Part shown: one piece after another, positions 30,053-59,795 of the stretch
Position numbering within the stretch: the first letter of the stretch is position 1
How the letters are laid out: every line of letters starts with the position of its first letter
From: Myxococcus stipitatus DSM 14675
Lineage (GTDB): Bacteria; Myxococcota; Myxococcia; Myxococcales; Myxococcaceae
Assembly (NCBI RefSeq): GCF_000331735.1
Contig: NC_020126.1
Location: forward strand, 2,232,001 to 2,296,000
DNA length: 64,000 bases
Reading direction: 5' to 3'
Program-made: the position numbers and the translations under genes
The notes under the pieces: model-generated
Database searches by the model: none
What the model saw: only the letters and a program-made list of their open reading frames with translations
Told to the model about the DNA's origin: nothing

Positions 30053-31389
30053 AGGCACCGCGGCTGTCGATTCATGAGCTGAACAAGGTGGACTGCCTTG
30101 GCTTCACGTTCGCTGGGGCTCTCGACCTGCGCGATGGCGAGAAACGAGGGCTGGCACCATTCCTGGATGCTCTGGAGACCCATGCTGCTGGGTGGATGCC
30201 TACCGTTGTCAATGCGAGCCGACGACGAAAGTATTCACGAGAGGCCGTGTGGCGCGCGATAGAGGAGCGACGCGCGGATTATGGCACGGTCATCGGATTG
30301 CACCGCGATGACTCTCCGGGTGTGTCAATGGTGCTCAGGTTGATGCCTCCGCACATGGAGCCCGAAGTCAGCGTCGATGTCGATGTGCAGCCGCTCTCAT
30401 TCTTCGCGGAAGAAGAGGCATGCCGGGGGGTAGTGTCCGTCGCACGTGTCTGGGCTACGCACTATCCTGCGCACCACGCGACGGCGCACAGCACGGCGGA
30501 TCGGGGCCTGACAGATGCTCCCGCCTTCGGTCGCGACGATGCGGTCTGGAAGAGGGACGGGTTCGACAAGATCTACGAGCTGTGCTGGCTGAACATCTTC
30601 GGCCCGAAGCTGGTGGAGTCCGTCGGGCGAGAGCGGATGCTCGCGACGCCCGCGCATCTCGTGGAGGAGCTCCCCAATGGTTCCATCCTCCTCGTCCTCC
30701 GGCCCACCGCCGCCGACTTCGACAGTGACGAGGCGCGTGTCGCGCAGGCCCGCGCGCACGTCCACCTGCGACCAGACCTCGACTTCGACACCGTCCTGCG
30801 CACCCTGAGAGCGCGCAGCGCCGCGCTCGTGCCCGTCGAGCCCCGCTTCCACCCCGACGTCGCTCCCCTCCTGTCACGGCTGCCGGACGAGTTCGCCATC
30901 AGCACGCGACAGCGGCAGATCGCCGAGCTCAATGCCTTCCAACCGCCCGAGCCGGAGGAGTGGCTTCCTGTCGCCTTCCCGTCCGACGTGGAGAACCCGG
31001 AGCGCCTCCGCGACCACTACGACGACCTGTCCGAGGGCCTCGTGGCGGCGCTGCACACCCACGTGCCCTCCCTCATGGACGAGACGCCGGAATCCCTCAC
31101 GGACCTGGACTTCTACTTCTGGAGGGAGAACTTCCCGAAGCGCTACACGCGCGAGCTCATCGACAGTCACACCGCTCCGGCCCTGGGCGCCTATCTCGGC
31201 GACGTGCTGGTGCGCCGGTTGGGCGGCACCTGGGTGCTGCGCGAGAAGAAGGATGAATCCCAGGTGCGCGTGGGGAATCGCGTCTGGCTGCCCTTCCTCC
31301 GGGCCCGCCGGTACCTGGAGTCGCGCCAATCCCTGCTGGCGTACTCGCTCACCCAGTTCTTCAAGGTGGCGGAGCGACACCGCTCCTGA
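30049..31389 (+). CDS. Probable immunity-type protein, two domains, unknown family
   Basis: A 446-aa soluble protein. The N-terminal half (about 1-250) includes GFTFAGALDLRDGEKRGLAP and IYELCWLNIFGPKLV. The C-terminal part (about 300-446) is a separate alpha/beta domain (GAYLGDVLVRRLGGTWVLRE, VGNRVWLPFLRARRYL). The start ATG overlaps the stop of the decayed toxin gene, which suggests it is the orphaned immunity partner. Base composition rises from the toxin-proximal end to the 3' end, hinting at a fusion of acquired and resident parts. A hairpin terminator follows at 31410. I know no named family for it. Confidence 0.8.
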   Translation: MKAPRLSIHELNKVDCLGFTFAGALDLRDGEKRGLAPFLDALETHAAGWMPTVVNASRRRKYSREAVWRAIEERRADYGTVIGLHRDDSPGVSMVLRLMPPHMEPEVSVDVDVQPLSFFAEEEACRGVVSVARVWATHYPAHHATAHSTADRGLTDAPAFGRDDAVWKRDGFDKIYELCWLNIFGPKLVESVGRERMLATPAHLVEELPNGSILLVLRPTAADFDSDEARVAQARAHVHLRPDLDFDTVLRTLRARSAALVPVEPRFHPDVAPLLSRLPDEFAISTRQRQIAELNAFQPPEPEEWLPVAFPSDVENPERLRDHYDDLSEGLVAALHTHVPSLMDETPESLTDLDFYFWRENFPKRYTRELIDSHTAPALGAYLGDVLVRRLGGTWVLREKKDESQVRVGNRVWLPFLRARRYLESRQSLLAYSLTQFFKVAERHRS

Positions 31390-31409
31390 CCCGAATGGCC
31401 GGCCTCTCT

Positions 31410-31441
31410 CCTGACACGGACCCCTCGATGTCTGTGTCAGG
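31410..31441 (+). terminator. Hairpin terminator after the 446-aa gene
   Basis: CCTGACACGGAC pairs with GTCTGTGTCAGG across the 8-nt loop CCCTCGAT: 12 bp with one G-T wobble. It lies 20 nt after the stop codon. Confidence 0.7.
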
Positions 31442-31635
31442 GAAGCAGGTCGGGTGTGGGATTGGACGAAGGTCCTGGGTGCAGGCATACCCAGCATGCT
31501 TTTGTTGACTCTCAAAGCCTGACAAACGCTCTTGTGTTGCGAGGCGTTCTGTCGGAAGTGAGGAGTAGTGTCGTTCATTCCACGGGGGGACAGTCCATTC
31601 CGGGCTTCATTCCGCTCCTCGGGGGGAGTCACTCC

Positions 31636-34026
31636 ATGCAGAGCCGTTCGGGTGTGTTGTGGTCTTGGGGACTGGGCCTGACGCTGGCCTTGTCGCTGAG
31701 CGCGTGTGGTGTCGAGTCCGAAGCAAGCAACTCGCAAGCGGAGGCAGAGGCGCTGGCGCGCCAGGGCGCCGCGCTGAGCTGGGACCCGTATGCGGACGCG
31801 GTGGCGTCTGGCACCACGGCGACGGTGCTCAACGCGAGCGCGGCGGTCGGCGCTCCGGACGGTCAGGCCGCGACCCTGTTGAGCCTGCTCAACTCGGCGT
31901 TGGTGCTGGACCTGGGCCAGGGCGAGGAAGGGACGGGCGACCTCCGCGTCTACTATCAGGGGCTCTCGCTGGCGCTGGTGGCCTCGGTGGACTTCCTGAA
32001 GGCGGATGGGACGTACATCGGCTCCAGCTCGCTGCACCTGGTGGAGCTGGGGCTGGGCACCCATGTGGCGGTGGCGACGTACTCAGGGAACGTGCCCTAT
32101 CGCTATGTGCGCCTGAAGGGCTCGCTGCTCGCCGTCTACCTGGTGGATGCGGTGGAGACCTCGCTGCGGCCCATCTGTGGCGATGGGAAGCTGGGTGGCG
32201 TCGAGGTATGTGACGACGGCAACCAGCTCTCCGGAGACGGCTGCAACAGCGTCTGCCAGGTGGAGCCGGGCTACACCTGCACCGGTGAGCCGAGCGTCTG
32301 TGACAACAACCGGGCGCCCACCGTCGACCCCGCCCAGGCGACCACTCCCGAGGACACCCCGGTCGTCATCTCCATCACCGCGGCGGACCCGGATGGCGAC
32401 ACGCTGACCTACTCGTACACCACGCCCGCGCACGGCACGCTCTCGCTCGCGGGGGCGTCGGTGACGTACACGCCGAACGCGAACTACCACGGCGCGGACT
32501 CCTTCCAGGTCACCGTCTCCGACGGCAAGAAGCAGGCGACGGCCACCGTCTCCGTCACCGTGACGCCGGTCAATGACGCGCCCGTCGCGTCTTCCGCGTC
32601 GGTGACGGTGAGCTTCAACACGTCGACGCCCATCACGCTGGTGGCCACGGATGTGGATGGGGATGCGCTCACGTACACGGCGACGGCGCCCGCGCACGGG
32701 ACGTTGTCCGGGACGGGCGCTCAGTTGCTCTACACGCCGAACGTGGACTTCCAGGGGGTGGACCAGTTCACCTTCGTGGCGAACGACGGCGCGGCGGACT
32801 CCAACACCGCCACCCTCACCATCACCGTCCGGGGGCCGCCCGTCTGTGGCGACGGCTACCTCGACTCGGGTGAGGTGTGTGACGACGGCAACCGCGCCGC
32901 GGGCGATGGCTGCCGAGCGGACTGCCGGGGCGTGGAGGTGTGTGGCGACGGCCTGGTCGACAGCGCGGCGGGAGAGCAGTGCGACGATGGCGGCAGGACG
33001 CCCGGAGATGGCTGCGATGCGGACTGCCAGTTGGATGCCTTCGAGAACACTCCTCCCACGCTCGTCAGCGGGACGCTGAGCTGCACCACGGCCAACTCGA
33101 ACACGGGCCGCAAGGCGGCGGTGGATGCGCTGGGCCGCTTCTACGTCGTCATGCTGTGCGGTGGTGAGGTCCATGTCAGCGTGAGCGTGGACCGCGGTCA
33201 CACCTGGGTGGGCCCCACGCCCCTGGGCATCACCAACGCGGCGGAGGTGGCCATCGAAGGCGGCCCCACGGGGACCGCGTACATCGCGGCCACCAGCGCG
33301 GGCTCGTTGTACTTCACCCGGACCGTCGACGCGGGAGCGACCTGGGAAGCGCCGCGAGTCCTCACCACGGCGGGCAACCCCACCGTCAGCATGGACTCCA
33401 TGGGCGATGCCCTCTACATCTCCGTCTCGCGAGGCCGCCCGGGGGTCCGCGTCCTCCGCAACTTCGCGCGAGGCGCGAACGACTTCATCGTGACGGACGT
33501 GGACCAGACCAATGCCTTCTTCGACGTCCTCGTGGACAAGATCAGCGGAGATGTCTTCTCGGTGAGCGACGACCCCTCGTTCCGCATCCGCCGCAGCAGT
33601 GACCAGGGGACCACCTTCGACCCCCAGAGCTCCCCGCCGGGGCAGGCCTTCTTCTCGGACTGGACGGGCTCCAACGGCTTCATCTACGTCACCGGCACCT
33701 TCGGGGACGACAACGTGGATGTCATCCCGGTGTCCGCGCCGGGGACGAGCACCCAGGTGTCGGGCCTCCCCACGGATGTCGGCCCCGGTCCCATCCGGAC
33801 CATCGACTCGGATGCGCTGGGCAATGGCTACATCGCCTCCCAGCGCGGGACGGGCAACGTCCAGTTGGACCGCATGCTCGTCGGGGCGACGACGATTCTG
33901 GCCGCGGATGCCAGGACGGTGGGGGCGGGCACCGTGCCTGCCGTCGCCGCGCTCCCGTCGAACGGAGGCGCGCTGGTGTCCTATACGAGCGGCACCAGCG
34001 TCTACGCCTCGGTGGTCGTGTACTGA
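31636..34026 (+). CDS. Cell-surface lipoprotein with DUF4215, cadherin-like and BNR-type repeats
   Basis: A 796-aa lipoprotein (lipobox LSAC, Cys about 21). In order: a beta domain (about 50-180), a Cys-rich DUF4215 unit ([16 protein letters not shown]), two Ig/cadherin-like repeats that each contain [13 protein letters not shown] or [17 protein letters not shown] cores (about 235-400), two more DUF4215 units, then a propeller-like region with Asp-box motifs ([30 protein letters not shown]). This is a typical myxobacterial adhesin- or sialidase-like surface protein, but no catalytic residues could be assigned. The start at 31636 has GGGGGAG 8 nt upstream and puts the signal peptide at the N-terminus. 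Confidence 0.88.
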
Positions 34027-34188
34027 CCTGATGTGCTGACGTCGCGGATGCGCGCCTCTCGATTCACGTGGGGGGCGCGCAGCCGTGCATCTGCTGACAC
34101 GACAGGTGGTGAATCGGTCCGCGATGTTGAAGCTGGCATCAGGGCGTTGGTGAGCGCCCGCGAAGGCATCAAGTAGGATGGGGCCGCC

Positions 34189-35516: not shown

Positions 35517-35526
35517 ATGCGAATCC

Positions 35527-36123
35527 TCAAGCAAGGGGGACGCTGGTGCGCCTCATCGCGAAGATGCTCTCGGGAATCTCCTCGATGGACAGGTTGGGGA
35601 AATCACGCACCGAGACGTGCTGCGGGTCGTTGCCTGAAACCATGCGGAGCAGCACGTTGGTTCCTGCCTGGAGATAGAAGCGCAACGGTGTCTTGCGTGG
35701 CCTGTCGAGGGTCCAGATATCCGCCCGGTGGCCCAACACGAAGGCCCATCCGGAATGGCGCGCATGCCCATCCACCAACACCGCCCGCGGAAGGAACAGC
35801 TCCTGGAACGGTGATAGCTCCTCCGGGAGCACGTCCGCGAAGAGGCCATCACCGGAGGGGGGCGTTCCGCGCCGGTAGGCGACCTTCTTCTGGAGGCTCT
35901 GTCCTCGAGTGACATCGCCGACTTCCGACATCCAGAGCTGGTAGCCCTTCTCCTTTTCGGGCCAGGGATTGAACAGACCGTCAATCCGGCAGACCTCGCG
36001 GGCATAGTCGAACCAGCAGTAGCCGGACGTGAGCTGGTCGTCTCCTCGCATGGGCGACCAATAGGACACGTAGCCGCTGCTCCATTGGAGGGGCAGGAGC
36101 GGCGGAAGGGAAGGGGCTTGCAT
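35527..36123 (-). CDS. vioE: Violacein biosynthesis enzyme VioE (protodeoxyviolaceinate synthase)
   Basis: A 198-aa protein clearly matching Chromobacterium violaceum VioE (191 aa): WSSGYVSYWSPM near the start, LTSGYCWFDY, RIDGLFNPW and YQLWMSEVGD are nearly identical to the remembered sequence. The active-site residues known as Tyr17, Ser19, Phe50 and Asn51 correspond here to Tyr18, Ser20, Phe51 and Asn52. VioE takes the VioB product (indole-3-pyruvate imine dimer) and moves an indole ring to give protodeoxyviolaceinate, with no cofactor. It is the last gene of the operon, 77 nt after vioC, where vioD would normally lie. The C-terminal third diverges more. Confidence 0.97.
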   Translation of the reverse strand: MQAPSLPPLLPLQWSSGYVSYWSPMRGDDQLTSGYCWFDYAREVCRIDGLFNPWPEKEKGYQLWMSEVGDVTRGQSLQKKVAYRRGTPPSGDGLFADVLPEELSPFQELFLPRAVLVDGHARHSGWAFVLGHRADIWTLDRPRKTPLRFYLQAGTNVLLRMVSGNDPQHVSVRDFPNLSIEEIPESIFAMRRTSVPLA

Positions 36124-36200
36124 GACGGGGCCTTGTCTCTCCAGGGAGAAGCCAGGGCCTCGGACGCCGCGCCGTCGGACCCGGGGATGAGGGGGGGCGG

Positions 36201-37490
36201 CTAGTTCATCCGGCCGAGCCGATACCAGACGTTCTGCTTCCGCTGGATTCGCTGCAGCTCGTCGTAGGGGACGGAATCGAAATACAGCTGCTCCGTCATG
36301 TCTGGCGGATAGAGGCGGGGGAACTTCTGATGCATGTAGCGCGCGTATTGGACCCGCAGGAAGAAGATGAAGCGGGGGTTGCTCAGCACCTCGTAGTTCG
36401 CGATGGACATGTCCTGCATGGCATCCGCCTGCACCTTGCGAAGGCGGGTGAACTCCGGGAGCGTCGCGTCCAGGTCATGCGCGTGCCTGTCCAGCAGGGT
36501 GGAGAGGACATAGGCATCTTCCAGCGCCATGTTCATCCCTTGGCCCAGGAAGGGTGCGGTGGCATGTGCCGCGTCCCCCAGCAGCAAGGCGTTCCCACGA
36601 AAGTGGAAGGTACTGGAGCGGACGTTGACGAGGTCGTTGCTGGGCAGGGCCATGAACTGCTCCAGCATCTCCCTCCTGCGGGCGAGCGGCAGCCCCCCGA
36701 AGTAATGGTCGAAGAAGCCACGGAGGGTGTCTCCGTCGGTCGTCGCCAGGCTGAGGGGGCCCGCGTAGGGCAGGCAGAGCGCGAAGCTGATGCTGTCTCC
36801 CGGGATGGTTGCCGCACGACCGGCGAACAAGCCCTTGGAGTCCATTCCAAAAAAGTAGAGCAAGTCCTTCCGGTAGCCCAGTTCCGCGGCATTGGATAGG
36901 ACCAGCGTCTTGTAGCCGTGGCGGAAGAATGTCTGTTTGAACTCGAAGCGCCGTGAGTTGCTCTGCATGGACTGGCGCACCGCGGAGTGCGCGCCATCCG
37001 CCCCGATGACGAGGTCCCCGGGATGGTGATGGACCTTGCCGTCCTTGGCCTGGACGAGGACGGACTTCTTCTCCAGGTCGACGCTCAGGCACCTGCACTC
37101 GAAGTCATACTTCACGCCGTGATGGGTGGCGTGCGTGTTCAACAGTTTCTGGAACGCCAGCCGGTTCAGGGACAGCGGGGATATCCCCTCGAGTGGCGTG
37201 AGCTCGCGAATCTTGTACTTTCCCCCGATGGAGAAGGCCATGCCGGCAATGGGCTCGCCGCATTGCTCCAGTTCCCGAGGGGCAATCCCGGCCTTCAACA
37301 CCGCCTTGATGCCCCGGACGTTCATGGTGACGCCGATGGCGCGCGAGGGGGGCATGTCCAAGGAGGAGGCGCTGTTGCTCAGGGGGTTCCTTCTTTTCTC
37401 GATGACACGAACGTCGTACCCGTGGCGCGCGAGATAGATGGCGGTCAGGCTGCCCGCCAGCCCACCGCCCACGATGATGGCTTTGTGCAT
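36201..37490 (-). CDS. vioC: FAD-dependent monooxygenase VioC (violacein pathway)
   Basis: A 429-aa flavoprotein, the same length as C. violaceum VioC and collinear with it throughout. The FAD fold starts with IIVGGGLAGSLTAIYLA, followed by GADGAHSAVRQ, and GDAAHATAPFLGQGMNMALED binds the flavin ribityl/phosphate. The C-terminus (IQRKQNVWYRLGRMN) is VioC-specific and excludes VioD, which is about 373 aa. VioC hydroxylates the second indole to form the oxindole of deoxyviolacein/violacein. Its ATG directly abuts the vioB stop, with an AGGGAGG ribosome site inside the vioB end, so translation is coupled. Confidence 0.97.
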   Translation of the reverse strand: MHKAIIVGGGLAGSLTAIYLARHGYDVRVIEKRRNPLSNSASSLDMPPSRAIGVTMNVRGIKAVLKAGIAPRELEQCGEPIAGMAFSIGGKYKIRELTPLEGISPLSLNRLAFQKLLNTHATHHGVKYDFECRCLSVDLEKKSVLVQAKDGKVHHHPGDLVIGADGAHSAVRQSMQSNSRRFEFKQTFFRHGYKTLVLSNAAELGYRKDLLYFFGMDSKGLFAGRAATIPGDSISFALCLPYAGPLSLATTDGDTLRGFFDHYFGGLPLARRREMLEQFMALPSNDLVNVRSSTFHFRGNALLLGDAAHATAPFLGQGMNMALEDAYVLSTLLDRHAHDLDATLPEFTRLRKVQADAMQDMSIANYEVLSNPRFIFFLRVQYARYMHQKFPRLYPPDMTEQLYFDSVPYDELQRIQRKQNVWYRLGRMN

Positions 37491-40400
37491 TCAGGCCTCC
37501 CTGGAGACGTTCCCTTGGGCCAGGTCCAGCAGTTGTCGATGGAAGAACTCCAACATCTCTACCTGCGCCGCGCCGACGAGGCCCGCCCCCAGGTCGCGGC
37601 CCCGCCGCGCCAGCGTCAGGCATTGCTGGGCCAGCAGCCGGCATCCCGTGGCGTAGTCTCGGTCGAGTTGTCCCTCGATGGGCTCGGGCACGGGGGGACC
37701 CGCCGTGCGCCCGGGCAGACCCGACGGAAGGTTCATCAGGGTGATGGACAGAGGGCGCAGCAGGCCCGTCATGATGTCGATGGACGCATTCATCAAGCGC
37801 GAGCGGCGCAAGCTGCCCAGCGGCCTCTGCGCGAAGTGATGAGCCATCAGGGAGAACATCAGCTCATGACATCCCTGGTACAAGCCCATCAGCGCCCGGG
37901 CTCCCTCGTCCACGACCTGGGCACAGTCCTCCCGGGGCTCCAGGCTCGGATTCCTCAGGGCTGGCACGGCAGGCTCGAACGGCTTCGCGAGGGCGCTGAA
38001 GCGCGAGGCCATGCGGCGCAGTCGCTGGAAGTGAGAGGATTCACTGTCGGGGGGGGCGAGCGCGAGGCCTTCTCCCTGGCGGGTGACGAAGTCGATGGAG
38101 AAGAGCGCGCTGTCCCGGTCAAAGACCTCCAGCTGATACGCCGGGAACAGCTTGTGGGTCAGCTCATCCAGGAAGAGATGATGCTCTCCGCCGCGCTTTC
38201 CGGGGCGGGTGTCGAACAGCTCAGGAATGTCTCTCAGCCCCTGGCGAATGGAGCTGTAGAGGTCGGCGATGGAGTTTCCCGGGACGGCGAGGTGCCCAGG
38301 CCATTCGAGACGAATGAACCGGGCGAGCACATGCTCCGAGAAGGGCTCGAAGGAGAACTCGGTGTCCAACCCGAAGTGGCGCCGCGCCTGGACTCCCCAC
38401 CTGGGGGTGCCGGGATGGAAGGGTTCGCCCAGGGCCATCAGCAGGTTGTTCATCACCAGGTAATGAATCATCTCTTCATGTGCAATCTCCAGCAACGTGC
38501 CGCGCATGCCACTGTTGCGACGCCTGTCCTCGGAGCCGCACGCCAGCTCGAGCTCCTCCACCCGCCAATGGCCCGCGCGGACCTGCTGGAGGCCTTGTTC
38601 ATGGTTGGGAATGGAATAGGCGGCGTACAGATACTGGAGGAGCAGCGACAGCTCCAGGTCGACTGCCTTCCGGAGCGCCTCGACGAGATGGACCTTGCAG
38701 GTGATGGGCGGTGGTCCACGCGTCTTGGGAGAAGATGTCCTGGAGCTGCCTTCGAGGTGCACCAGATACTTCAGGAACAGCTTGGACTTGGGCAGGGAGA
38801 GTTCCCGGGTGCTGGGCATGTAATAGCTCTTGTCCCGGTTGAGCGGGTCGCACATCTGCCACATCAGCCGGGAATATGTTTCGCACTTGCAGCGGTCCGC
38901 CAGGCTGAAGACCTTGTCCGACATGAAGGGGTAGAGCAGCTCGTAGTAGCTCATGACGTGCTGATACAAGAACGCATAGTCCACTTGCTCGGCGGGGACC
39001 TCGTCCAGGTGCCAGTCGTCCGGGAGGATTCTGACGTCGATGACATGGCTGTCTTGTCCGGCGCCCAGCGCGACGCGAGTCACGCCAGGGTGTTGTCCCG
39101 TGAGGGTGAGCTGGGCATAGCCCTCCCCCTGTGGCGAAGGTGTCAGGTGCGCGGTCAGCTTGTCGGAGTCCTCCGCCCGCACTGTCACCGCCGAGGCCGA
39201 GGCCAGCTCGCCACGGAGGCGGCTCTGCACCGTGAGGGTCTCCGGGAAGAACAGGCCTTTCTGTCGGTGGGGGGCCTCGAGGAACAGGTGGTTGCTGTCG
39301 GACTGGACCACCCAGTCGACTTCGGTCCACAGCGCGTCTTCACCCGTCAGGAGGAGCGACCCGGTGGCGGGGCTCAGCAGGGGCACGTCGAGGATGCCGT
39401 GATGGCGCCAATGGTCGAGGTAAAGCCTCTCGGGGATGTTGGCAATCCGTGCGCCGGACAGGTCGCGGAGCACGAGGTCTCCCAGGGGCTGCTTTCCGCC
39501 GAGGTGATGGGTGGGGTGCTGAGCCGAGACGGGATGGGCGCTTCGGGTCGTGAAAGGCACGGCGGTCGGCATGTTGAGGGACACCCGGTCCGACTGCACT
39601 TTCACCACGACAGGCCCCAGGCCGGACTGGCGGGGCAGCAGCAGGCGCCCTGCTGGATGGGTCTCCAGTTCGTGCCGACACCACAGGCCCAGGGTGCCCA
39701 TCAGGTCATAGAAGACAGGTGAGTCCGCGCCTCGGGGTGTCGACATGTTGAACAAGGCGTACTGGACCGTCAGTCCCTGTATCTCCTCGTCGTGCAGCGC
39801 CTGCCGCAGGGCCCGCAGGCCAGGGGAAGGGGCGGCTTGGGACTCGAGTGGGAACTCCGCGTCCTGCTTCGACACGGAGAATTGGAACAGCCGTGCGCGG
39901 CCGAACTCCTCGGCGAGGAAATGGTCGCCGCGCTCGACGATGTGCCCTGTCCTGACCCAGCGGACAGGCTGCGCACGCGGAATACTCGCCGTGAGCAAGG
40001 ACGGCGTGTGAGGCGTGGCGTGCTTGTCGCTCAGGGTCAGCTGCCCTGCATAGATCAAGGTGGTGTCGGGCCTGCTCGGGTTGTTGTCCACCCATCTGGC
40101 GCGATTGAAGGTCGTGCGGAGGTAGTCATTGTAGTGACCCCAGAGCGCCAACGAGGCCCCGACCAGGCTGTCCTCCGTGTCGACGGCTCCTTCGGCCCGT
40201 TGCACGCCCGTGACTCGGACGTTCTCCCAGGAGAAGTGGTTGTTGCCGCCGAAGTTGTGGCCAGCGGCCTCGCTGAAGACTCCCTCGGAGTCCGGTCTCC
40301 CTTCCGCGTCGAATCGGGGCGCCAGCCGTTTCAGGTGCGCATGGAAGACGGAGGGTGGCCGGCGGAGGTCGAACGGGGCTCCCTCCATGAAGACGGTGTT

Positions 40401-40502
40401 GGTGGTGATGTCGATATGGCCATGGGTGTTTCGGTTCGCGGTCGGCACATTGGCGCGAGCGAAGCCTCGAAAATGCAGCCGAGGGAAGGACAGGGTGCTC
40501 AT
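37491..40502 (-). CDS. vioB: Iminophenylpyruvate dimer synthase-type enzyme VioB
   Basis: A 1003-aa protein collinear with C. violaceum VioB (998 aa): N-terminal FPRLHFRGFARANVPTANRN, central YPFMSDKVFSLADRCKCETY and C-terminal GSLRRSRLMNASIDIMTGLL. A ferritin-like domain (about 600-850) keeps helices with KAVDLELSLLLQYLYAAYSI and LLEIAHEEMIHYLVMNNLL, the metal-site E and ExxH residues. VioB is a heme-containing enzyme that couples two indole-3-pyruvate imine units made by VioA. It starts 32 nt after the vioA stop and abuts vioC. A 911-codon open frame antisense to it is a composition artefact. Confidence 0.97.
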   Translation of the reverse strand: MSTLSFPRLHFRGFARANVPTANRNTHGHIDITTNTVFMEGAPFDLRRPPSVFHAHLKRLAPRFDAEGRPDSEGVFSEAAGHNFGGNNHFSWENVRVTGVQRAEGAVDTEDSLVGASLALWGHYNDYLRTTFNRARWVDNNPSRPDTTLIYAGQLTLSDKHATPHTPSLLTASIPRAQPVRWVRTGHIVERGDHFLAEEFGRARLFQFSVSKQDAEFPLESQAAPSPGLRALRQALHDEEIQGLTVQYALFNMSTPRGADSPVFYDLMGTLGLWCRHELETHPAGRLLLPRQSGLGPVVVKVQSDRVSLNMPTAVPFTTRSAHPVSAQHPTHHLGGKQPLGDLVLRDLSGARIANIPERLYLDHWRHHGILDVPLLSPATGSLLLTGEDALWTEVDWVVQSDSNHLFLEAPHRQKGLFFPETLTVQSRLRGELASASAVTVRAEDSDKLTAHLTPSPQGEGYAQLTLTGQHPGVTRVALGAGQDSHVIDVRILPDDWHLDEVPAEQVDYAFLYQHVMSYYELLYPFMSDKVFSLADRCKCETYSRLMWQMCDPLNRDKSYYMPSTRELSLPKSKLFLKYLVHLEGSSRTSSPKTRGPPPITCKVHLVEALRKAVDLELSLLLQYLYAAYSIPNHEQGLQQVRAGHWRVEELELACGSEDRRRNSGMRGTLLEIAHEEMIHYLVMNNLLMALGEPFHPGTPRWGVQARRHFGLDTEFSFEPFSEHVLARFIRLEWPGHLAVPGNSIADLYSSIRQGLRDIPELFDTRPGKRGGEHHLFLDELTHKLFPAYQLEVFDRDSALFSIDFVTRQGEGLALAPPDSESSHFQRLRRMASRFSALAKPFEPAVPALRNPSLEPREDCAQVVDEGARALMGLYQGCHELMFSLMAHHFAQRPLGSLRRSRLMNASIDIMTGLLRPLSITLMNLPSGLPGRTAGPPVPEPIEGQLDRDYATGCRLLAQQCLTLARRGRDLGAGLVGAAQVEMLEFFHRQLLDLAQGNVSREA

Positions 40503-40534
40503 GGCGTTCGATGCGAAGGACCGCGAGGATTTCG

Positions 40535-41803
40535 TCAGTTCCGATTCGAGGACGTGCTGGTGAGTTGCTCCAGCAGGAGTCGAATGGCTTGATGTGCGCT
40601 GAGCAGTCCCCCCTCCATCCAGCCGCCATGCGGCGTGTAGGCATCCGAGCAGGCAATGACACCCGTGCGATGAAGCAAGGCGGTGGGCTGCGTGGCCGTG
40701 GATTCGAGCGAGAACTCCACGCCATGGGGCCAGTGTTTGTGGAAGTGGTCCTTGATGGACGGGAGGGACTTGCCACCGAGGGGGAGCACCTGCTCCATGC
40801 AGGCGCGGACCCTGTTCAAATAGACATCTTCACCTTGCTCCAGACAGTCCCGCCAATAGGTTGCGTTGTCGCCGTCGGTGTAGAACTGTACGTATTTCTC
40901 GTCCTTGAAGTAGATCTTCCTCAAGGGATTGTTGACCACCAGGACCTTGTCCGTCAGGTGACAGTCATGCCACCAGGCGCTGTCGAAGGTCAGGACCCCC
41001 TTGAACAAGGGCAGTGAGCCATACTGCAAGGGGCTCCAGTGGGCGGGAAAGTCGAGATTGAGCCGTGTCATCGCGGAGGGGGGGATGGCCAGGATGAGGT
41101 GACGCGCTCGATGTATCTGGGTGTTTCCCTTGTGGCTGAAGGCGAGGATGTATCCCTTCACGAATCGCGAGATGGAGAGCAGGTGGTGTTCCATCCGGAA
41201 CTCGACGCGGCTGGCCTGTGCCTGACACTGAAGCCGTGCCAGCAGCCGGCCGTACCCCTCCGGCGCATAGCGCCACTGGTTGCCTTCACCCTCAATCAGT
41301 CCTTGGGTCTCCGGGTGGTTCTTGAGGATGCCGTACGCCATGGGCGCGGAGACGATGGGGAGAAGGAGGGCGTCATACCCCAGGGCCTTGATGATTCGCC
41401 GGGCCTCGGTCGCCCCCAGGTAGTGACTGACGAAATCCAGGAATGAGTCAGAGGGATGTTTCTCCAGCTTGGAGCGCAGGCCGAGCAGGGTTGTCCGCAG
41501 CTGCCCCCTCATGCCGTCCTGGAAGATGGCATGGGTGAATGGGTAGGCTTCATGAGGGTGTTGGAAGCAGTTCATGAGCGCCTGGAAGCGGGGATGGAGT
41601 TGCGGTGAGTAGCGCGCGGCTCCTAGTTCCGTGATTTCTCCGCAGTGGAGCCGCTTCGACAGGATGCGACCGCCCACGTGGGTGTTCAAATCAAAGACGC
41701 GGATGCGCAGCTTGTTGCTCAGCCGGGAGGTGGCGAGCCGGGACGCACAGGTGAGCCCTCCGATTCCCGCGCCAATGATGCAGATGTCCGAATGATGTGG
41801 CAT
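40535..41803 (-). CDS. vioA: L-tryptophan oxidase VioA (FAD amine oxidase family)
   Basis: A 422-aa flavoenzyme matching C. violaceum VioA (418 aa): SDICIIGAGIGGLTCASRL (FAD-binding), ELGAARYSPQLHP, HLILAIPPSAM, YGSLPLFKGVLTF, NPLRKIYFK and the end GVIACSDAYTPHGGWMEGGL. It oxidises L-Trp to indole-3-pyruvate imine with release of H2O2, the first pathway step. The ATG at 41803 is chosen because the homologue starts MxHSSDIC; a TTG at 41836 is possible. It is the first gene of the vio operon, transcribed leftward. No clear ribosome site is seen. Confidence 0.97.
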   Translation of the reverse strand: MPHHSDICIIGAGIGGLTCASRLATSRLSNKLRIRVFDLNTHVGGRILSKRLHCGEITELGAARYSPQLHPRFQALMNCFQHPHEAYPFTHAIFQDGMRGQLRTTLLGLRSKLEKHPSDSFLDFVSHYLGATEARRIIKALGYDALLLPIVSAPMAYGILKNHPETQGLIEGEGNQWRYAPEGYGRLLARLQCQAQASRVEFRMEHHLLSISRFVKGYILAFSHKGNTQIHRARHLILAIPPSAMTRLNLDFPAHWSPLQYGSLPLFKGVLTFDSAWWHDCHLTDKVLVVNNPLRKIYFKDEKYVQFYTDGDNATYWRDCLEQGEDVYLNRVRACMEQVLPLGGKSLPSIKDHFHKHWPHGVEFSLESTATQPTALLHRTGVIACSDAYTPHGGWMEGGLLSAHQAIRLLLEQLTSTSSNRN

Positions 41804-42114: not shown

Positions 42115-42286
42115 GCTTTGATGATGAGCAAGGCGCGTTCGCGCGGCTCCGTCCGGCGCGCACCGACAGCTTGATGTGGCCCCCAGGGACTCAACCCCAG
42201 GCGGTGTCATGCGGGGCCCAAGGGGTTTCCCGATTTCTCGAAATCCACACCCTATTCAGAAGGGGCTGCGTTGAGTGGGGGGCGCC

Positions 42287-43205
42287 ATGACGACCTCCCT
42301 CGAACATCTTCCCCGCCCCCTGGCCCTGCTGTCGGGCTTGTGGATGCCTTCCGGCTGTACCCCCGCGAGCGAGGGTGAGCGTTCCTGTCCCTGTGCCCCA
42401 GGGTGGACATGCTGCCCTGACACGAACGTGTGTGCGGCGGACGCCTCGCGCTGTGAGCCGCCCCGGCCGATGCCTCCCGACTCCACGGCGCCGTCCCAGC
42501 CGCGCGGGTTGGCGGCCTCGCCGCGGCCTGGCCGCGTGTGCTCACCTGGTTCGAGCTGGAGGACGACGGCGGCAGCGCCCTCACCAGCGACGGCGTCGAG
42601 GTGGACCCGTGCGAGGACGGTCAACAGGTGCTCGTCGAAGCAGACGCGGCGACCGTGACGGGCCTGCGCGCGGGGGGGCCTACCGCTTCACCGTGGTCGC
42701 AAGCAACGCGGTGGGCGCGAGCCCCTCGGCGGTGGTGGAGTTCGTGAAGCTCCCGGACGTGCCGGGTTCGCCCACGCTGCTCGCTGTCCGGCAGGGAGAC
42801 CGGCGGCTGGGCGTCGAGGGGCGGTGCCCTGTCGAGCACCGACGCGCAATGTCACCTCCCTGACCGTGTCGGATTCGACGGGGGGCAACTCCACGGATGA
42901 CACCGAGGCCACCTTCACCGGGGCGGCGCGGAACGGGGTGGGGCAGGGGCCCGTCGCGACCTCGGCGGCCGTGCGCACTCCCGCGCGGCCCGGTGCGCCC
43001 TCCGGTGTCCGCGTGGAGCCAGGGGAGCGTTCGCTCTCCATCTCGTGGGCGCCGCCTGTCTCGGACCTCATGGGATTCACCGTGCTCGCCCAGCCTTCGG
43101 GTGTGCGCGTGGAACTGGGGCCCGAGGCACGGGAAGTCGTCCTGGATTCGATGCCCAGCACCCGCGCGCAGGTCCTCACCGTGACGGCCTACCCCGATGT
43201 GCTTC
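42287..43205 (+). pseudogene. Fibronectin type III lipoprotein pseudogene
   Basis: It starts with a lipoprotein-like signal (ATG 42287, WMPSGC) and Cys-rich CPCAPGWTCCPDTNVC, then breaks. Fibronectin-III pieces follow in shifted frames: LTWFELEDDGGSALTSDGVE (shift near 42535), YRFTVVASNAVGASPSAVVE and LPDVPGSPTLLAVRQGDRRL (shift near 42680), and GAPSGVRVEPGERSLSISW..REVVLDSMPSTRAQVLTVTA (shift near 42830). It ends without a proper C-terminus near the convergent LysR gene. At least three frameshifts make it inactive. Confidence 0.8.
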
Positions 43206-43265: not shown

Positions 43266-44189
43266 TCAGGTCTTCCCCTCCCATCGCTTGCGCTGGTCGA
43301 CGAGGAACCCCATCAGCGCCTGGACCTTCTTCGGCAACTGCTTGCGGGAAGGAACGTAGAGATAGAAGCCCGGGAAGGGGGGGCACCAGGGCTGCAGCAC
43401 ACGCACCAGGCTTCCGTCGTCGAGGTGCCTTTGTACGGCCTGGTCGATGTGCTGAATCAGGCCGACCCCCTGCAGCGCGGCGCGCAGCATGCTGTCGTCG
43501 TCGTTGGTGATGTGGTTGCCCTTCGTCGCCACGGAGAAGTCCTGGCCGTTGGGGCCGGGCGCGGTGAACTCCCAGTCGTGGAGTGCGCCGCTGCCCGCGT
43601 GGCGATAGTTGATGCAGTTGTGATGGACGAGGTCTGCCGGTGTCTTCGGCGCGCGCCGGCGCGCGAAGTACGAAGGGGCGCCGACGACGGCCATCGACAG
43701 CATGGGGCTGACCGGCACCGCCACCATGTGCTCGGCGAGGCTCTGTCCCAAGCGGATGCCCGCGTCGCAGCCGCTGGCGATGATGTTGGACAGCCCGTCG
43801 TCCATCACCAACTCCAGGGACAGGTTCGGGTAGCGCGCGAGGAACTCCCCCAGGTGGGGTTCAATCAGGTACCTGGCGGCCATGCGCGCGGTGTTGACCT
43901 TCAGCAGGCCGGAGGGCATTCCGGCGGCCTCCCCCAGGCCGCGCACGGCGCTCTCGATGGTGCCCAGGGAGGGGAGCAAGGCATCGAACAGATGCTGGCC
44001 GTCCTCCGTCAGCGACATGTCGCGTGTGGTGCGGTTGAGGAGCCGGACGCCCAACTGCTTCTCCAGCGCCTTGAGGTTCTGTGAGAGCGCCGCGCGCGAC
44101 ACCCCCATCTGCGCGGCGGCCTTGGTGAAGCTGCGGTGGGACGCGACGTGGGCGAACCATGCGAGGGAGGGCAGCAGGGCCGGGTTCAT
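43266..44189 (-). CDS. LysR-family transcriptional regulator
   Basis: A 307-aa regulator with an N-terminal winged HTH (residues 1-62; HRSFTKAAAQMGVSRAALSQ) and a substrate-binding domain (about 90-300). It belongs to the CrgA/DsdC-like group judged by GLLKVNTARMAARYLIEPHL. It is divergent from a dienelactone-hydrolase-like gene at 44346, the standard arrangement for a LysR regulator and its target. A T-N11-A type dyad (GTAA-N8-TTAC) lies 10 nt upstream of its ATG. Confidence 0.95.
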   Translation of the reverse strand: MNPALLPSLAWFAHVASHRSFTKAAAQMGVSRAALSQNLKALEKQLGVRLLNRTTRDMSLTEDGQHLFDALLPSLGTIESAVRGLGEAAGMPSGLLKVNTARMAARYLIEPHLGEFLARYPNLSLELVMDDGLSNIIASGCDAGIRLGQSLAEHMVAVPVSPMLSMAVVGAPSYFARRRAPKTPADLVHHNCINYRHAGSGALHDWEFTAPGPNGQDFSVATKGNHITNDDDSMLRAALQGVGLIQHIDQAVQRHLDDGSLVRVLQPWCPPFPGFYLYVPSRKQLPKKVQALMGFLVDQRKRWEGKT

Positions 44190-50277: not shown

Positions 50278-50469
50278 TCACGCCGCCCGCGCGACAGGCG
50301 CCCGGGCGCCGGCTCGCCCTGGAGGGTGAGGATACTCGCCCGCAGATGAGAGGCGTTGCGGGTCCGTTGTCGGATTCGCACGGGTAAGGGATTGGACGTA
50401 GAGGGTCATGTGGCTGGCGTCCGTGTGACAGTTGTTGTCGTCGAACTGGAAGTCATAGGAGCGAACCGT
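50278..50469 (-). pseudogene. Possible C-terminal gene remnant
   Basis: On the minus strand an open frame without a start reads VRSYDFQFDDNNCHTDASHM and TLYVQSLTRANPTTDPQRL before a stop at 50278. The ordered, protein-like composition suggests the 3' end of a lost gene rather than chance, but I cannot name the family. The rest of the 403-nt gap between the sulfatase gene and the sigma-54 activator gene shows nothing clear. Confidence 0.3.
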
Positions 50470-50549
50470 CTGCGTTCATCTCATTGAATGAGACGCCACC
50501 CCATCTCCAGGGTGAGCAGGGGTCCCTGACCGGCAAGGGGCTCGAGGGC

Positions 50550-51911
50550 ATGACGCGCATGAGGATCTGGATTCGCTTCGTGGGGAGTGGTGCCAGCGGG
50601 ATGCGTCCGAAGGTCATGGAGGCGCTGGCGCGGGTGGGCATCGAGCCGGAGTGCTCGGAGGGGACATCTCCCTTGGGCCTCGGGGTGCTGGTGTTCGATG
50701 AGGTGGGCCCGATGACGCTCGAGGCCGTGCGAGGTTGCCGGCTGCACGCGTCGACGCGGGTGCTGGCGGTGGCGACGACGGAGAAGGCGCTGGGGGAGGG
50801 CGCATGCTGGCGGCTGCTCCTCGAAGGGGCCGCGGATGTGATTGCCTGGGAGGGCGCTCATGACGCGGTGGCGGAGATCTCCGCCCGGCTGGAGCGCTGG
50901 CACGCCGTGGACAGGATCATCGACTCGCCCGGGGTGCAGCGGCGCCTGGTGGGGCGCTCGCCTTCGTGGCTCCCCGTGCTCCGTCAGATTGTCGAGGTCG
51001 CGACCTTCACGGACGCCTCGGTGCTGCTCCTCGGCGAGAGCGGCACCGGCAAGGAGGAGGTCGCGCGTCTCATCCACGAGCTCGACCGGCGTGCGCACAA
51101 AGGGGACCTGGTGACGCTGGATTGCACCACGGTGGTGCCGGAGTTGTCGGGCAGCGAGTTCTTCGGCCACGAGCGGGGTGCCTTCACGGGGGCCGCGGGC
51201 GTGCGGGATGGCGCCTTCGCCCTGTCGCATGAGGGGACGCTGTTCCTGGATGAAGTGGGAGAGCTTCCGCTGGCGCTCCAGGCGCAATTGCTCCGCGTGG
51301 TGCAGGAGCATTCGTACAAGCGCGTCGGCTCCAACACCTGGCAGCACGCGGACTTCCGGCTGGTCTGCGCGACCAATCGCGAGCTGAGCGAGGAGGTCAC
51401 CCAGGGCTCCTTCCGCCGCGACTTCTTCCATCGCATCTCGAGCTGGGTCTGCCGGCTGCCACCGCTGCGCGAGCGGCCCGAGGACATCCTCCCCCTCGCG
51501 CTGCACTTCCTGCGGACGATGCGGCCCGACGTGGAGCTGGTCCTGGACCCGCGCGTGCGCGACTACCTGCTCCAGCGCAGCTACCCGGGGAACATCCGCG
51601 AGCTTCGCCAACTCATGGGCCGCATCTGCAAGCGGCACGTGGGCTCGGGGCCCATCACCGTGGGCGACATCCCCTCGGACGAGCTGCCGTCACTCGAAGG
51701 GCTCTGCGAGTGGAGGGACCAGTCCTTCGCGCGCGCCGTCCAGCACGCGCTGACGATGGGGATGGGGCTGAAGGAGATTGGCCGGAGCGCCTCGGAGATG
51801 GCGATTCGGCTGGTGCTCGCGGAAGAGGAGGGCAACCTCCAGCGCGCGGCCCGGCGACTGGGGGTCACGGACCGCGCGCTCCAGCTCCGGCGCGCGCAAC
51901 AGGAGGACTAG
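50550..51911 (+). CDS. Sigma-54-dependent transcriptional activator (Fis-type HTH)
   Basis: A 453-aa enhancer-binding protein. The N-terminal region (1-110) resembles a response-regulator receiver fold but lacks a clear phospho-acceptor set. The AAA+ domain (about 125-350) has Walker A LGESGTGKEE, the sigma-54 contact GAFTGA and Walker B LFLDEVGEL. A C-terminal Fis-type HTH (about 415-450) ends the protein. It is probably controlled by ligand or partner rather than phosphorylation. The ATG at 50550 or 50559 is likely; a TTG at 50484 is also in frame. Its stop overlaps the stop of the convergent operon (shared CTAG). Confidence 0.93.
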   Translation: MTRMRIWIRFVGSGASGMRPKVMEALARVGIEPECSEGTSPLGLGVLVFDEVGPMTLEAVRGCRLHASTRVLAVATTEKALGEGACWRLLLEGAADVIAWEGAHDAVAEISARLERWHAVDRIIDSPGVQRRLVGRSPSWLPVLRQIVEVATFTDASVLLLGESGTGKEEVARLIHELDRRAHKGDLVTLDCTTVVPELSGSEFFGHERGAFTGAAGVRDGAFALSHEGTLFLDEVGELPLALQAQLLRVVQEHSYKRVGSNTWQHADFRLVCATNRELSEEVTQGSFRRDFFHRISSWVCRLPPLRERPEDILPLALHFLRTMRPDVELVLDPRVRDYLLQRSYPGNIRELRQLMGRICKRHVGSGPITVGDIPSDELPSLEGLCEWRDQSFARAVQHALTMGMGLKEIGRSASEMAIRLVLAEEEGNLQRAARRLGVTDRALQLRRAQQED

Positions 51912-52840
51912 CGAAGCGGGATGTTCCTCAGCGCCTGGGCGGCCTGGCGTCCCCAGGTGCTGTGGGGGAACAGGCCGGGGAGGGTGGACAGGTCGTCGTC
52001 AGGGCCCTCCTCGACGAAGCCCGGGTTGCGCAGCGTGCCCGTGCGCACGACGCCCACGCGTGGCAGGGCCTGGCAGAGGGCGCGTTGCACCTGCTTGCGG
52101 GCGCGTGGCGTGTTGGGCTGGAGCCTGGCGAACCAGAGGGTGAGGGGCCGGAGCAGCCGCCCTCCCCGACGTGTGAAACCCATCTGGTAGAGCGAGGACA
52201 GCCGCTCCCTCCAGTGCTCCTGGAAGTGGGGCGTCGCACCCACGAAGAGCGGGCGTCCCTCCTCTTCCACGACGTACACCCCGCCACCGTCAGGGAAGCG
52301 GGTGAACGGATATCGCTCCACCGTCACCTTCGACCACGAGATGCGCGGCCCGGACGTGAGGAGCTCCTCTTGCGTATCGGGCTCGGTGGGCTCATCCCCG
52401 GGCTCCTCCGGCACGTCGTCCACCGGTGCGTCATCTTCGTACGGAGGCGGCTCGGGCGGAGGCGCGGAGCCACCCGACGCGGTGTTTCGCGGTGGCGGTG
52501 GGGGTGGTGGCGGGCTCGCCTCGGGTGGAGGTTCCGGAATCGGCTCCACCACGAGGGGCAGCCGAGGTCCCACCCCCAGGAAGCGCCACGGCCGATGCCG
52601 AGGCCAACGCCGCTTCGGGTTCGGCTTCCACAGTCCCCGGCCCGCCTTCGCCGCGACGCGCTTCTTGCTGCCCGCGCGCCGGGTGGTGGTGACCCGAACT
52701 CCTCCCGGGCGGCGGTCCGTGCTCGCGGCCCTCGTGGTGCCCCGCGGCTTGCGCTGGGGCGCTGTGCGAGGCCGCTGGATGAAGGACTCCTCCGTCCCCT
52801 CGCGCGCTCGCGTGTCTTCACCTTCATGCCACTCGTTCAT
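51908..52840 (-). CDS. Pro-rich protein with GIY-YIG-like C-terminal domain
   Basis: A 310-aa protein. Residues 1-100 are basic and disordered (RRAGSKKRVAAKAGRG), 100-160 Pro/Glu-rich, and 175-310 a folded domain opening GGGVYVVEEEGRPLFVGATP, which has the spacing of a GIY-YIG core (GVY..and LFVG) followed by WRERL in place of the usual catalytic Arg helix. Conserved Glu and Tyr later in the domain were not located with confidence, so nuclease activity is uncertain. It is the last gene of a five-gene operon and overlaps the preceding PLP gene by 17 nt. Confidence 0.78.
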   Translation of the reverse strand: MNEWHEGEDTRAREGTEESFIQRPRTAPQRKPRGTTRAASTDRRPGGVRVTTTRRAGSKKRVAAKAGRGLWKPNPKRRWPRHRPWRFLGVGPRLPLVVEPIPEPPPEASPPPPPPPPRNTASGGSAPPPEPPPYEDDAPVDDVPEEPGDEPTEPDTQEELLTSGPRISWSKVTVERYPFTRFPDGGGVYVVEEEGRPLFVGATPHFQEHWRERLSSLYQMGFTRRGGRLLRPLTLWFARLQPNTPRARKQVQRALCQALPRVGVVRTGTLRNPGFVEEGPDDDLSTLPGLFPHSTWGRQAAQALRNIPLR

Positions 52841-53915
52841 GACGTGTCCTCTCGTGATGTTCGTCGTGGAGCGCCTCGGTCAGGAGGTCCACGGCTTGGG
52901 TCAGCTCCGGCGCGCCGTGCCGGGTCGTGAGGATGAAGCTCACCGAAACCTCCGGCCCGCAGCGTGAGCGCTGGAGCACGGTGCGAACGCCCTTGTGCCG
53001 CAGCCGCTCGTGGACCCGGCGCGAGTCCACCCCCGAGGGCAGCAGCACCCTCTGCACGGGGAACGGCCCGCCCAGGGCGCTCAGCCCCGCAAGCCGCAGT
53101 CGCTCGCGGAAGTGGGCCACACGCTGGGCCAGCGCGCGGCGAAGGGCGTCCCCCTCCCGATGATTGATGGCGAGGGCCCGCTGCGCGGCATGCAGGTCCG
53201 CGACCGACGGTGGACTGCAATGCACACGCGTCTCTCCGCGTGCCTCGATGCGAGCCACCACCCTGGCATCCCCCGCCACCGCCGCCATGGGCACCCCCAA
53301 CGCCTTCGCCAGGGAGCCGCACCACAAGAGATCCGGCCCTTGAAGCCCTTCCCATCGCAGCGAGCCCCCACCGCCCACCCCCAGCGGCAAGCCCCTGTGC
53401 CGTCGCCCGAGCACGCCCACGGCCTGGGTGTCATCGACGATGAGCAGCCCTCCATGCGCACGGACCAGGTCCAGGTACGCCTCGAGCGGCGCCAGCTCCC
53501 CGCAGCCCGGACACCAGCCATCGCAGACCACCACCGGCAGGCGCCCCGGGTCCAACGAGAGGATTCTCCGCGCCAGGCTCTCGGGCGAGTGGTGGTGGAA
53601 CCCGCGCGCGGGAACGCCTCGCGCGGCCATGGTCTCGATGCCCCACTTCGCTATCGGATAGGCGCCGTCGTCCCAGAACAAGGAGACACGGCGCCCCTCC
53701 AGCCCGCTGAACACATCCCAGAACACATGCAGCGTGGACCGGGAGAGCAGCGCGCGGTCACAGCCCACCAGCTCCGCCAGGTCGCGCTCCGTCCTGGCCA
53801 CGGAGGCGGGCTCTTCAACGACGGCGGGCGCGCCCAGGGTGAGCTGCTCCCAGGGCTCGAGCGTCCGGCTGGCATGCACCAGCCCCAGGTAGAGCGAGGA
53901 GGTGAAGTCGAGCAC
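52824..53915 (-). CDS. AONS-like (alpha-oxoamine synthase family) PLP enzyme
   Basis: A 363-aa fold-type I PLP enzyme. D161/D162 in IVDDTQAVGVLG and lysine K204 in CGSLAKALG match the 8-amino-7-oxononanoate synthase / KBL pattern (DDAHxxGxLG, SxxKA). CPGCGELAPLEAYLDL fits the strand before the PLP aspartate. It starts at GTG 53915, 14 nt after the stop of the preceding gene, and overlaps the next gene. No biotin or heme genes are near, so it probably joins an amino acid to an acyl donor, or transaminates, for a purpose specific to this module. Confidence 0.9.
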   Translation of the reverse strand: MLDFTSSLYLGLVHASRTLEPWEQLTLGAPAVVEEPASVARTERDLAELVGCDRALLSRSTLHVFWDVFSGLEGRRVSLFWDDGAYPIAKWGIETMAARGVPARGFHHHSPESLARRILSLDPGRLPVVVCDGWCPGCGELAPLEAYLDLVRAHGGLLIVDDTQAVGVLGRRHRGLPLGVGGGGSLRWEGLQGPDLLWCGSLAKALGVPMAAVAGDARVVARIEARGETRVHCSPPSVADLHAAQRALAINHREGDALRRALAQRVAHFRERLRLAGLSALGGPFPVQRVLLPSGVDSRRVHERLRHKGVRTVLQRSRCGPEVSVSFILTTRHGAPELTQAVDLLTEALHDEHHERTRHERVA

Positions 53916-53929
53916 GGGCGTCGAGCTCC

Positions 53930-55744: not shown

Positions 55745-55759
55745 GTTCTTCCTCCAAAG

Positions 55760-57103: not shown

Positions 57104-57109
57104 GGCGGG

Positions 57110-57739
57110 CTAGACTCCGTGGAGGATGATCTTGTTGCCCTTGCGCACCCAGCGGCCGCTGGTCGCCGTGCCCGCGCGTGGAGGCGTGGCGGCGCCCGCG
57201 AGCCCAGGGGCATAGCGCTGGATGGCCTGCTGCATGGCCGCGCCCACCGCCTGCTGCGGCGAGGCGCCTTCCCCCGCGGAGAGCGCCGCGCGAGAGGCAT
57301 TGCCGGCGAGTCGCACGAACTGCTTGGCCACCTCGAACTCGCGGTCCTCCTGGCTCAGCCCCTCCAGCTCCAACCCGAAGGCCTGGCCCACGCGCTGGCC
57401 CAGCTTGCCGCCGACGGCGCCGCCCAGCCCGGGGAGCACCATGTTGCCGACGGCGCGACCTCCGGCGACGAGGCCCTGCTTGGCCAGGCTCTTGAGCTTC
57501 GCGCCCAGCGCCTGACCCGTGGGGCTGGACACCACCTTGCGGATGGCGGAGCCCGCCTTCTTGATGAGGCTGCCCAGGAACTGCTCGAGCTCCTGGTCAT
57601 TGCCCACCTCCAACAACTCCATGGCGAGCTCGTTCAGCTCGCTCTCGTTGAACACCTCCCCCCATTCCTCCTCGGTGTTGAACTCGAACTCGAACGACTC
57701 GTCTTCCTGCTCCTGGTAGGTACGATCCACGTCATGCAT
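57110..57739 (-). CDS. Acidic/Gly-rich small protein, first gene of the five-gene module
   Basis: A 209-aa protein. The N-terminus is very acidic (ESFEFEFNTEEEWGEVF), followed by AMELLEVGNDQELEQFLGSL, a Gly/Ala-rich hydrophobic middle (GLVAGGRAVGNMVLPGLGGA) that could insert into or pass a membrane, then GLELEGLSQEDREFEVAKQF and an alpha-helical C-terminus. The LELEGLSxEDxEFE pattern recurs, from memory, in many environmental bacteria in proteins of unknown role. It probably acts as an effector or substrate of the module. Confidence 0.82.
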   Translation of the reverse strand: MHDVDRTYQEQEDESFEFEFNTEEEWGEVFNESELNELAMELLEVGNDQELEQFLGSLIKKAGSAIRKVVSSPTGQALGAKLKSLAKQGLVAGGRAVGNMVLPGLGGAVGGKLGQRVGQAFGLELEGLSQEDREFEVAKQFVRLAGNASRAALSAGEGASPQQAVGAAMQQAIQRYAPGLAGAATPPRAGTATSGRWVRKGNKIILHGV

Positions 57740-58027
57740 GGGTCAGGTCCTCGTGTGGTGGCCCGGCAGATGTGGCCGCCGGTTGAGGAGGGCCGTAGCA
57801 GCGCGTGTGCCAGCCTTGGAGGACGCCGTGTTCCCTCTGGGCGCGAGGCCCCCCGGCGCGAAGCGCGCTTCGGTGGCGGGGGCGGGCGGGGATATCCAGC
57901 GAAGGGGGCTTCGGTGCCTGCCCCGGCAGGAGGCAGGCGGGCCTTGAACGAAGCCCGCAACCCATTCCGTCCTCGAGGCCCCGAATCGTCTACTGTGGGC
58001 GGCCTCGGAAAGGTCGGTGGTCAGTCC
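57740..58027. other. Divergent intergenic region between the five-gene module and the radical SAM gene
   Basis: 288 nt containing the promoters of both units. A hairpin with a bulge (GCGGGCCTTGAACGAAGCCCGC, 57937-57958) lies 70 nt before the radical SAM ATG. I found no RiPP-precursor-like small ORF with a credible start here. Confidence 0.5.
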
Positions 58028-59746: not shown

Positions 59747-59795
59747 CTTGATGTGTCGTTGACGGGCGCCCACGCCCGGCGCGCAAGATGGGGAC

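What the first reader, a model, noticed from the sequence alone, without database searches (positions are those of the whole stretch)
35527..41803. Violacein-type operon vioABCE lacking vioD in a myxobacterium-like genome
Four contiguous genes match VioA, VioB, VioC and VioE across their whole length, with VioC exactly 429 aa and conserved VioE active-site residues. VioD, the 5-hydroxylase, is absent. In Chromobacterium, loss of VioD yields deoxyviolacein, so this strain should make deoxyviolacein (or a further-modified analogue) directly. I associate violacein clusters mainly with beta- and gamma-proteobacteria; a vioD-less natural operon in a predatory, fruiting-body-forming lineage would be notable.
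Basis: partly seen in the sequence, partly recalled or inferred. Interest (0 to 1): 0.95.

Follow-up and report, generated by a model that had tools for sequence, protein, structure and literature searches.

The report
Violacein operon without vioD
A fruiting-body-forming Myxococcus carries four of the five genes of the violet-pigment (violacein) pathway, with no vioD found anywhere in its genome, so it would likely make the simpler pigment deoxyviolacein; the five relatives in its family found to carry the pathway have the same four genes and no vioD.

Summary
Window 35527-41803 (minus strand) holds vioA-vioB-vioC-vioE, each over its curated cut-off. A VioD model finds nothing in this genome, but scores 629-684 bits in all eight searched genomes whose vio locus shows vioD. 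This is no one-strain accident: 6 of 96 genomes of the family carry vioE, all six as A-B-C-E without vioD. Among loci scanned across bacteria, vioD follows vioC in 48 of 50; the exceptions are a Myxococcus and Fluviispira, which keeps a short vioD scar. Trees place the Myxococcus operon beside Oxalobacteraceae and far from Fluviispira, so vioD was probably lost at least twice. All four genes show purifying selection. The likely product, deoxyviolacein, is inferred, not measured; passages I saw on this strain mention only yellow pigment. A 'violacein' cluster in this species is already in print (PMC8307915); my searches found no mention of the missing vioD.

The parts
40535..41803 (-). vioA, flavin L-tryptophan oxidase (422 aa)
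   Evidence: NF053546 612.6 bits (cut-off 600); solved VioA 5zbc E 2.7e-132
37491..40502 (-). vioB, iminophenyl-pyruvate dimer synthase (1003 aa)
   Evidence: TIGR04492 1943.6 bits over 1-1003; Pfam Ferritin-like domain
36201..37490 (-). vioC, FAD/NADPH monooxygenase (429 aa); keeps 139 of 148 columns that are invariant in 48 VioCs from vioD-bearing clusters
   Evidence: NF053548 808.2 bits over 1-429; column count
35527..36123 (-). vioE (198 aa), the enzyme that steers the dimer to the violacein skeleton
   Evidence: TIGR03650 284.7 bits, PF18234 282.4 bits; solved VioE 3bmz
36124..36200 (-). 77-bp vioC-vioE spacer, where vioD stands in other clusters; no trace of vioD found
   Evidence: Gaps of 1127-1179 bp in most vioD-bearing clusters (L040 1261, L032 5455); relic test of this spacer negative

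Best explanation
Window 35527-41803 is a violacein-type operon, vioABCE, that lacks vioD and is predicted to convert two L-tryptophans to deoxyviolacein rather than violacein. Inferred steps, from the established pathway: VioA oxidises tryptophan to the imine, VioB couples two imines, VioE rearranges the dimer to prodeoxyviolaceinic acid, and with no VioD to hydroxylate C5 of one indole, VioC oxygenates the other ring and air oxidation gives deoxyviolacein. Shown by sequence: the Myxococcus operons are one clade, sister to those of Oxalobacteraceae; vioD is missing in all six genomes of the family that carry the operon; the four genes carry the mark of purifying selection. Inferred: the operon reached the family by horizontal transfer, and vioD was deleted once, before the six operons diverged.
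For: Curated family matches for all four genes. VioD model: 0 hits at E<=0.001 in this genome, over the cut-off in all eight searched genomes whose vio locus shows vioD. 6 of 96 family genomes carry vioE (the same 6 among 195 of the phylum), and all six lack vioD between C and E (gaps of 10-136 bp between match ends) and genome-wide (five without a hit, G015 with one 22-bit hit). In the contig scan vioD follows vioC in 48 of 50 loci with vioC. Myxo operons are one clade, 100/100, sister to Oxalobacteraceae 100/100, among vioD-bearing lineages, rooted on cyanobacterial VioB+C+E. dN/dS of this operon against five relatives is 0.12-0.33 in the four genes. VioC keeps 139 of 148 invariant columns. 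A synthetic vioABCE operon produces deoxyviolacein (PMC11236898, passages).
Against: No expression or chemistry. In a 2026 paper on this strain a term search finds 'pigment' five times, the passages shown speaking of yellow DKxanthenes, and neither 'purple' nor 'violac' (PMC13218925), so the operon may be silent on laboratory media. Nine invariant VioC columns are changed in this strain, three of them in all six species (I288V, A362S, T405D), effect unknown. VioA is only 12.6 bits over its cut-off. BLAST similarity to the other five operons stops within 25 bp upstream of the vioA start (a forced alignment shows patches), so no common promoter is evident. An unrelated hydroxylase cannot be excluded by homology.
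Confidence: 0.77

Rival explanations
1. Violacein is still made: a monooxygenase unrelated to VioD, or VioC itself, hydroxylates C5 of the indole.
For: A genome of this size probably encodes other flavin monooxygenases; one 14.9-bit fragment resembles VioD here, and fragments of 10-19 bits occur in the relatives. Three VioC columns are fixed differently in the six species.
Against: No VioD homologue at E<=0.001 in this genome; no gene besides vioABCE is shared by the six neighbourhoods compared; no VioC column separates all eight vioD-less sequences from the 48 vioD-bearing ones (one VioA column does).
Confidence: 0.1
2. The operon is silent or makes mainly shunt products (prodeoxyviolacein, chromopyrrolic acid), so no deoxyviolacein accumulates.
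For: The passages seen on this strain mention only yellow pigment (PMC13218925, term search); upstream regions differ among species.
Against: dN/dS 0.12-0.33 in the four genes, with VioC the lowest in four of five comparisons, which is hard to reconcile with a useless last step.
Confidence: 0.13
3. vioABCE is the ancestral form and vioD was added later in other lineages.
For: Vio clusters without vioD occur in two lineages; no vioD scar was found in any of the six Myxococcus spacers.
Against: vioD follows vioC in cyanobacteria, gamma- and betaproteobacteria; Fluviispira holds a vioD scar; the Myxo clade is nested among vioD-bearing ones.
Confidence: 0.05

Closest known systems
vioABCDE violacein cluster of Oxalobacteraceae (Janthinobacterium, Duganella, Massilia)
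   Same: Same gene order A-B-C-(D)-E; proteins 59-72% identical over 20 loci, L003-L022 (VioA 61-66, VioB 66-70, VioC 68-72, VioE 59-64); sister clade at 100/100.
   Different: vioD (about 1.1 kb) is absent; the host is a myxobacterium.
vioABCDE of Chromobacterium
   Same: Same four enzymes, 48-71% identical over five loci, L023-L027.
   Different: vioD present there; one branch further out on the tree.
vioABCE of Fluviispira multicolorata and of a second genome of its order
   Same: Also without an intact vioD: C-E gaps of 126 and 44 bp between match ends.
   Different: Separate lineage beside Iodobacter; one clade with Myxo rejected, AU p 8e-81. Fluviispira keeps a vioD scar. A review table lists it under 'violacein-like production' (PMC7308576, passage).
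Synthetic vioABCE deoxyviolacein operon (PMC11236898)
   Same: Same gene set; its makers state that it produces deoxyviolacein and put it into several hosts (passages).
   Different: Man-made; this one is natural and conserved.

Membership tests
Violacein-type (VioE-dependent bisindole) gene cluster | VioE present with catalytic residues | tested here: met
   TIGR03650 and PF18234 over cut-off; columns kept (catalytic roles recalled)
Violacein-type (VioE-dependent bisindole) gene cluster | VioA and VioB, tryptophan oxidation and dimerisation | tested here: met
   NF053546 612.6/600 and TIGR04492 1943.6/1250 bits
Violacein-type (VioE-dependent bisindole) gene cluster | VioC monooxygenase | tested here: met
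   NF053548 808/760 bits
Full violacein pathway vioABCDE | VioD 5-hydroxylase | tested here: not met
   No match in the cluster or, at E<=0.001, in the genome
Deoxyviolacein pathway (vioABCE) | Deoxyviolacein produced | not testable with these tools
   Needs LC-MS
Deoxyviolacein pathway (vioABCE) | Genes functional, not decaying | tested here: met
   Open frames of full length, dN/dS 0.12-0.33 against five relatives

The most novel reading that the evidence does not exclude
Deoxyviolacein, known as a by-product or an engineered product, is the dedicated end product of natural pathways that evolved at least twice by deletion of vioD, once in Myxococcaceae and at least once in Fluviispira's order, both far outside the beta- and gammaproteobacteria; in Myxococcaceae the pathway then moved among sites and species as a sealed four-gene unit.
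Probability: 0.55. Interest if true: 0.6.

Novelty: new variant of a known kind. Interest (0 to 1): 0.47.

Why it matters
It predicts a named pigment in a culturable myxobacterium for which my paper searches showed no such chemistry, and it offers a natural test of what the 5-hydroxyl of violacein is for: two unrelated lineages lack the gene that adds it, and in the one tested the rest is kept under selection.

Tried and rejected
Relic of vioD in Myxococcus spacers: none in six (of eight spacers tested only Fluviispira's scored, 30.9 bits, 0 of 300 shuffles as high). A tailoring gene shared by the neighbourhoods: none among frames of 100 aa or more; the few shared neighbours are a cadherin-like gene in three of six, a weak 24% pair between L077 and L078, and a 38% LysR pair between the window and L078. 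Residues that mark vioD-less clusters: none in VioB, VioC or VioE, one column in VioA. A promoter common to all six operons: not found. Transcriptome paper of this species (PMC8561891): five terms searched in its main text, none found. A common vioD-less ancestor for Myxo and Fluviispira's order: rejected. Whether the two operons of that order lost vioD once or twice is open (AU p 0.36; 12% of 200 bootstrap trees join them). Structure prediction was not run: it would not tell the substrate.

Rows dropped: one search used 54 of 60 rows; six loci without all four genes were dropped (L031, L032, L033, L034, L040, L050). Left out beforehand as second copies: L002 (same contig as L080) and L089 (same place as L042). 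One search used 30 rows that I chose to span the groups, without VioA, with two cyanobacteria as outgroup. The shorter pieces L056-L061 are the same places as L077-L081 and the window.

Full report
Observation. The four genes are present as described, on the minus strand, vioA first: vioA 40535-41803, vioB 37491-40502, vioC 36201-37490, vioE 35527-36123. vioA and vioB are 32 bp apart, vioB's stop codon adjoins vioC's ATG, and vioC and vioE are 77 bp apart. Each product passes the curated cut-off of its NCBIfam equivalog model, VioA by a small margin. Solved structures of VioE and VioA are the best PDB matches of those two; the best PDB matches of VioC are kynurenine 3-monooxygenases.

Host. 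The window lies in a single-contig genome of 10,350,586 bases. That is the size printed for Myxococcus stipitatus DSM 14675 (PMC3622980, part 1 of 2 of the text read). The identification rests on this exact equality; the family of the unnamed relatives (code f1) is called Myxococcaceae on that ground.

vioD. The VioD model NF053547 finds no match at E<=0.001 in the genome. One search ran it on 18 genomes, the six vio-bearing ones of the family and twelve more that I picked as vio-bearing. Eight are over its cut-off: Janthinobacterium, Massilia, Chromobacterium, Paludibacterium, Pseudoalteromonas, Iodobacter and two Nostocaceae. They are exactly those of the 18 whose vio locus shows a vioD, so they serve as positive controls. 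Weak matches of 22-30 bits occur in four others, among them one Myxococcaceae (G015) and Fluviispira; of 14 control genomes Bacillus subtilis gave a match below the cut-off. With a Chromobacterium VioD as the query the best match in this genome is 14.9 bits, E 0.03.

Distribution. VioE (PF18234) is found in 6 of 96 genomes of the family, five in the window's genus and one in another genus, and in no further genome of 195 in the phylum. In all six the order is A-B-C-E (the window). The C-E gaps are 77 bp in the window and 71, 59, 79, 10 and 136 bp in L077-L081, these measured between match ends (in L077 the VioE match starts at residue 12, so its true gap is shorter). The scan of genome contigs gave 54 VioE loci. 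Of the 50 with vioC in view, 48 have a vioD of at least 354 matched residues after vioC; the exceptions are L002 (a Myxococcus, same contig as L080) and L042 (Fluviispira). The four loci without vioC are cyanobacterial, and one of them has vioD. A second genome of Fluviispira's order (2 of 15 carry vioE) also lacks vioD, with a 44-bp gap; its VioE begins exactly as that of P0088, which its source names Pigmentibacter ruber.

The scar. In Fluviispira's 126-bp gap, 31 residues match VioD 304-334 at 42%. The NCBIfam model finds the same place in the whole genome at E 3.7e-7, with one stop. Against a model of 49 VioDs the gap scores 30.9 bits, above all of 300 shuffles. So there vioD was most likely present and was deleted. 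The six Myxococcus spacers hold no such trace.

History. A tree of VioA+B+C+E from 54 rows and a careful tree of VioB+C+E from 30 rows rooted on cyanobacteria agree: Myxococcaceae form one clade at full support, sister to Oxalobacteraceae at full support, within a group whose other members carry vioD. Fluviispira and its relative lie beside Iodobacter. Holding Myxo and these two together costs 1325 log-likelihood units (AU p 8e-81); holding the two together is not rejected (p 0.36). Parsimony needs three changes of vioD on both trees, two if the two are one clade. The counts do not give direction; nesting, the constant position of vioD and the scar argue for loss.

Movement. G+C of the four genes is 60.8-65.1%, against 67.8% for the window and 69.2% printed for the genome. 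A relative without vioE, G072, has the flanks: window 30168-34100 and 42254-43192 lie about 0.7 kb apart there, and 50300-60000 follows at 93% identity. L079, probably M. landrumensis (its contig is 100 bases shorter than the longest contig named for P0001; VioE 87% in both), has the operon at the same site on the vioE side; on the vioA side the stretch 41.8-48.6 kb of the window is missing there. In the other four genomes DNA similarity to this window ends at the operon in the stretches compared, except for one gene about 5 kb away in L081. Whether G072 lost the operon or never had it is open.

Selection. Nei-Gojobori dN/dS between M. stipitatus and five relatives is 0.12-0.33 over the four genes, with VioC lowest in four of five comparisons. 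VioC keeps 139 of the 148 columns invariant in 48 vioD-bearing clusters, and 135 are kept in all six species. This fits a working last step. Not shown: the product.

What is in print. PMC8307915 (passage seen) lists a violacein cluster in M. stipitatus DSM 14675 and in strain SCHIC003; PMC10435759 and PMC12211065 (passages) list violacein clusters among Myxococcus strains. Ten paper searches were made; 'deoxyviolacein' + 'vioD' + 'Myxococc' gave no paper, and of the seven papers for 'deoxyviolacein' + 'Myxococcus' none has a title about a myxobacterial cluster (titles and abstract starts only). The library holds open-licence papers only, and supplements were not read, so print elsewhere cannot be excluded.

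Noticed in passing
L042:9876-9968: A short vioD scar between vioC and vioE of Fluviispira multicolorata (42% over 31 residues; 0 of 300 shuffles as high).
   Followed up: yes
L031, L034, L050: Calothrix loci with VioE but no VioA, VioC or VioD match in the DNA held; L031 also has VioB (38%), L034 and L050 have VioE alone (tblastn).
   Followed up: no
L040 and L032: Nostocaceae clusters hold VioB, VioC, VioD and VioE but show no VioA match at E 1e-10, so tryptophan oxidation may use another enzyme; L032 as fetched starts inside vioB, so its upstream side was not seen.
   Followed up: no
window 43266-44189: A LysR-type regulator gene about 1.5 kb beyond the vioA start; a 38% identical LysR gene lies near the operon in L078, possibly by chance, and the stretch is missing in L079.
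   Followed up: partly
window 35517-35527: A small gene-like stretch beside the operon in L079 and at the empty site L090 is cut short here: the match ends at vioE's stop codon.
   Followed up: partly
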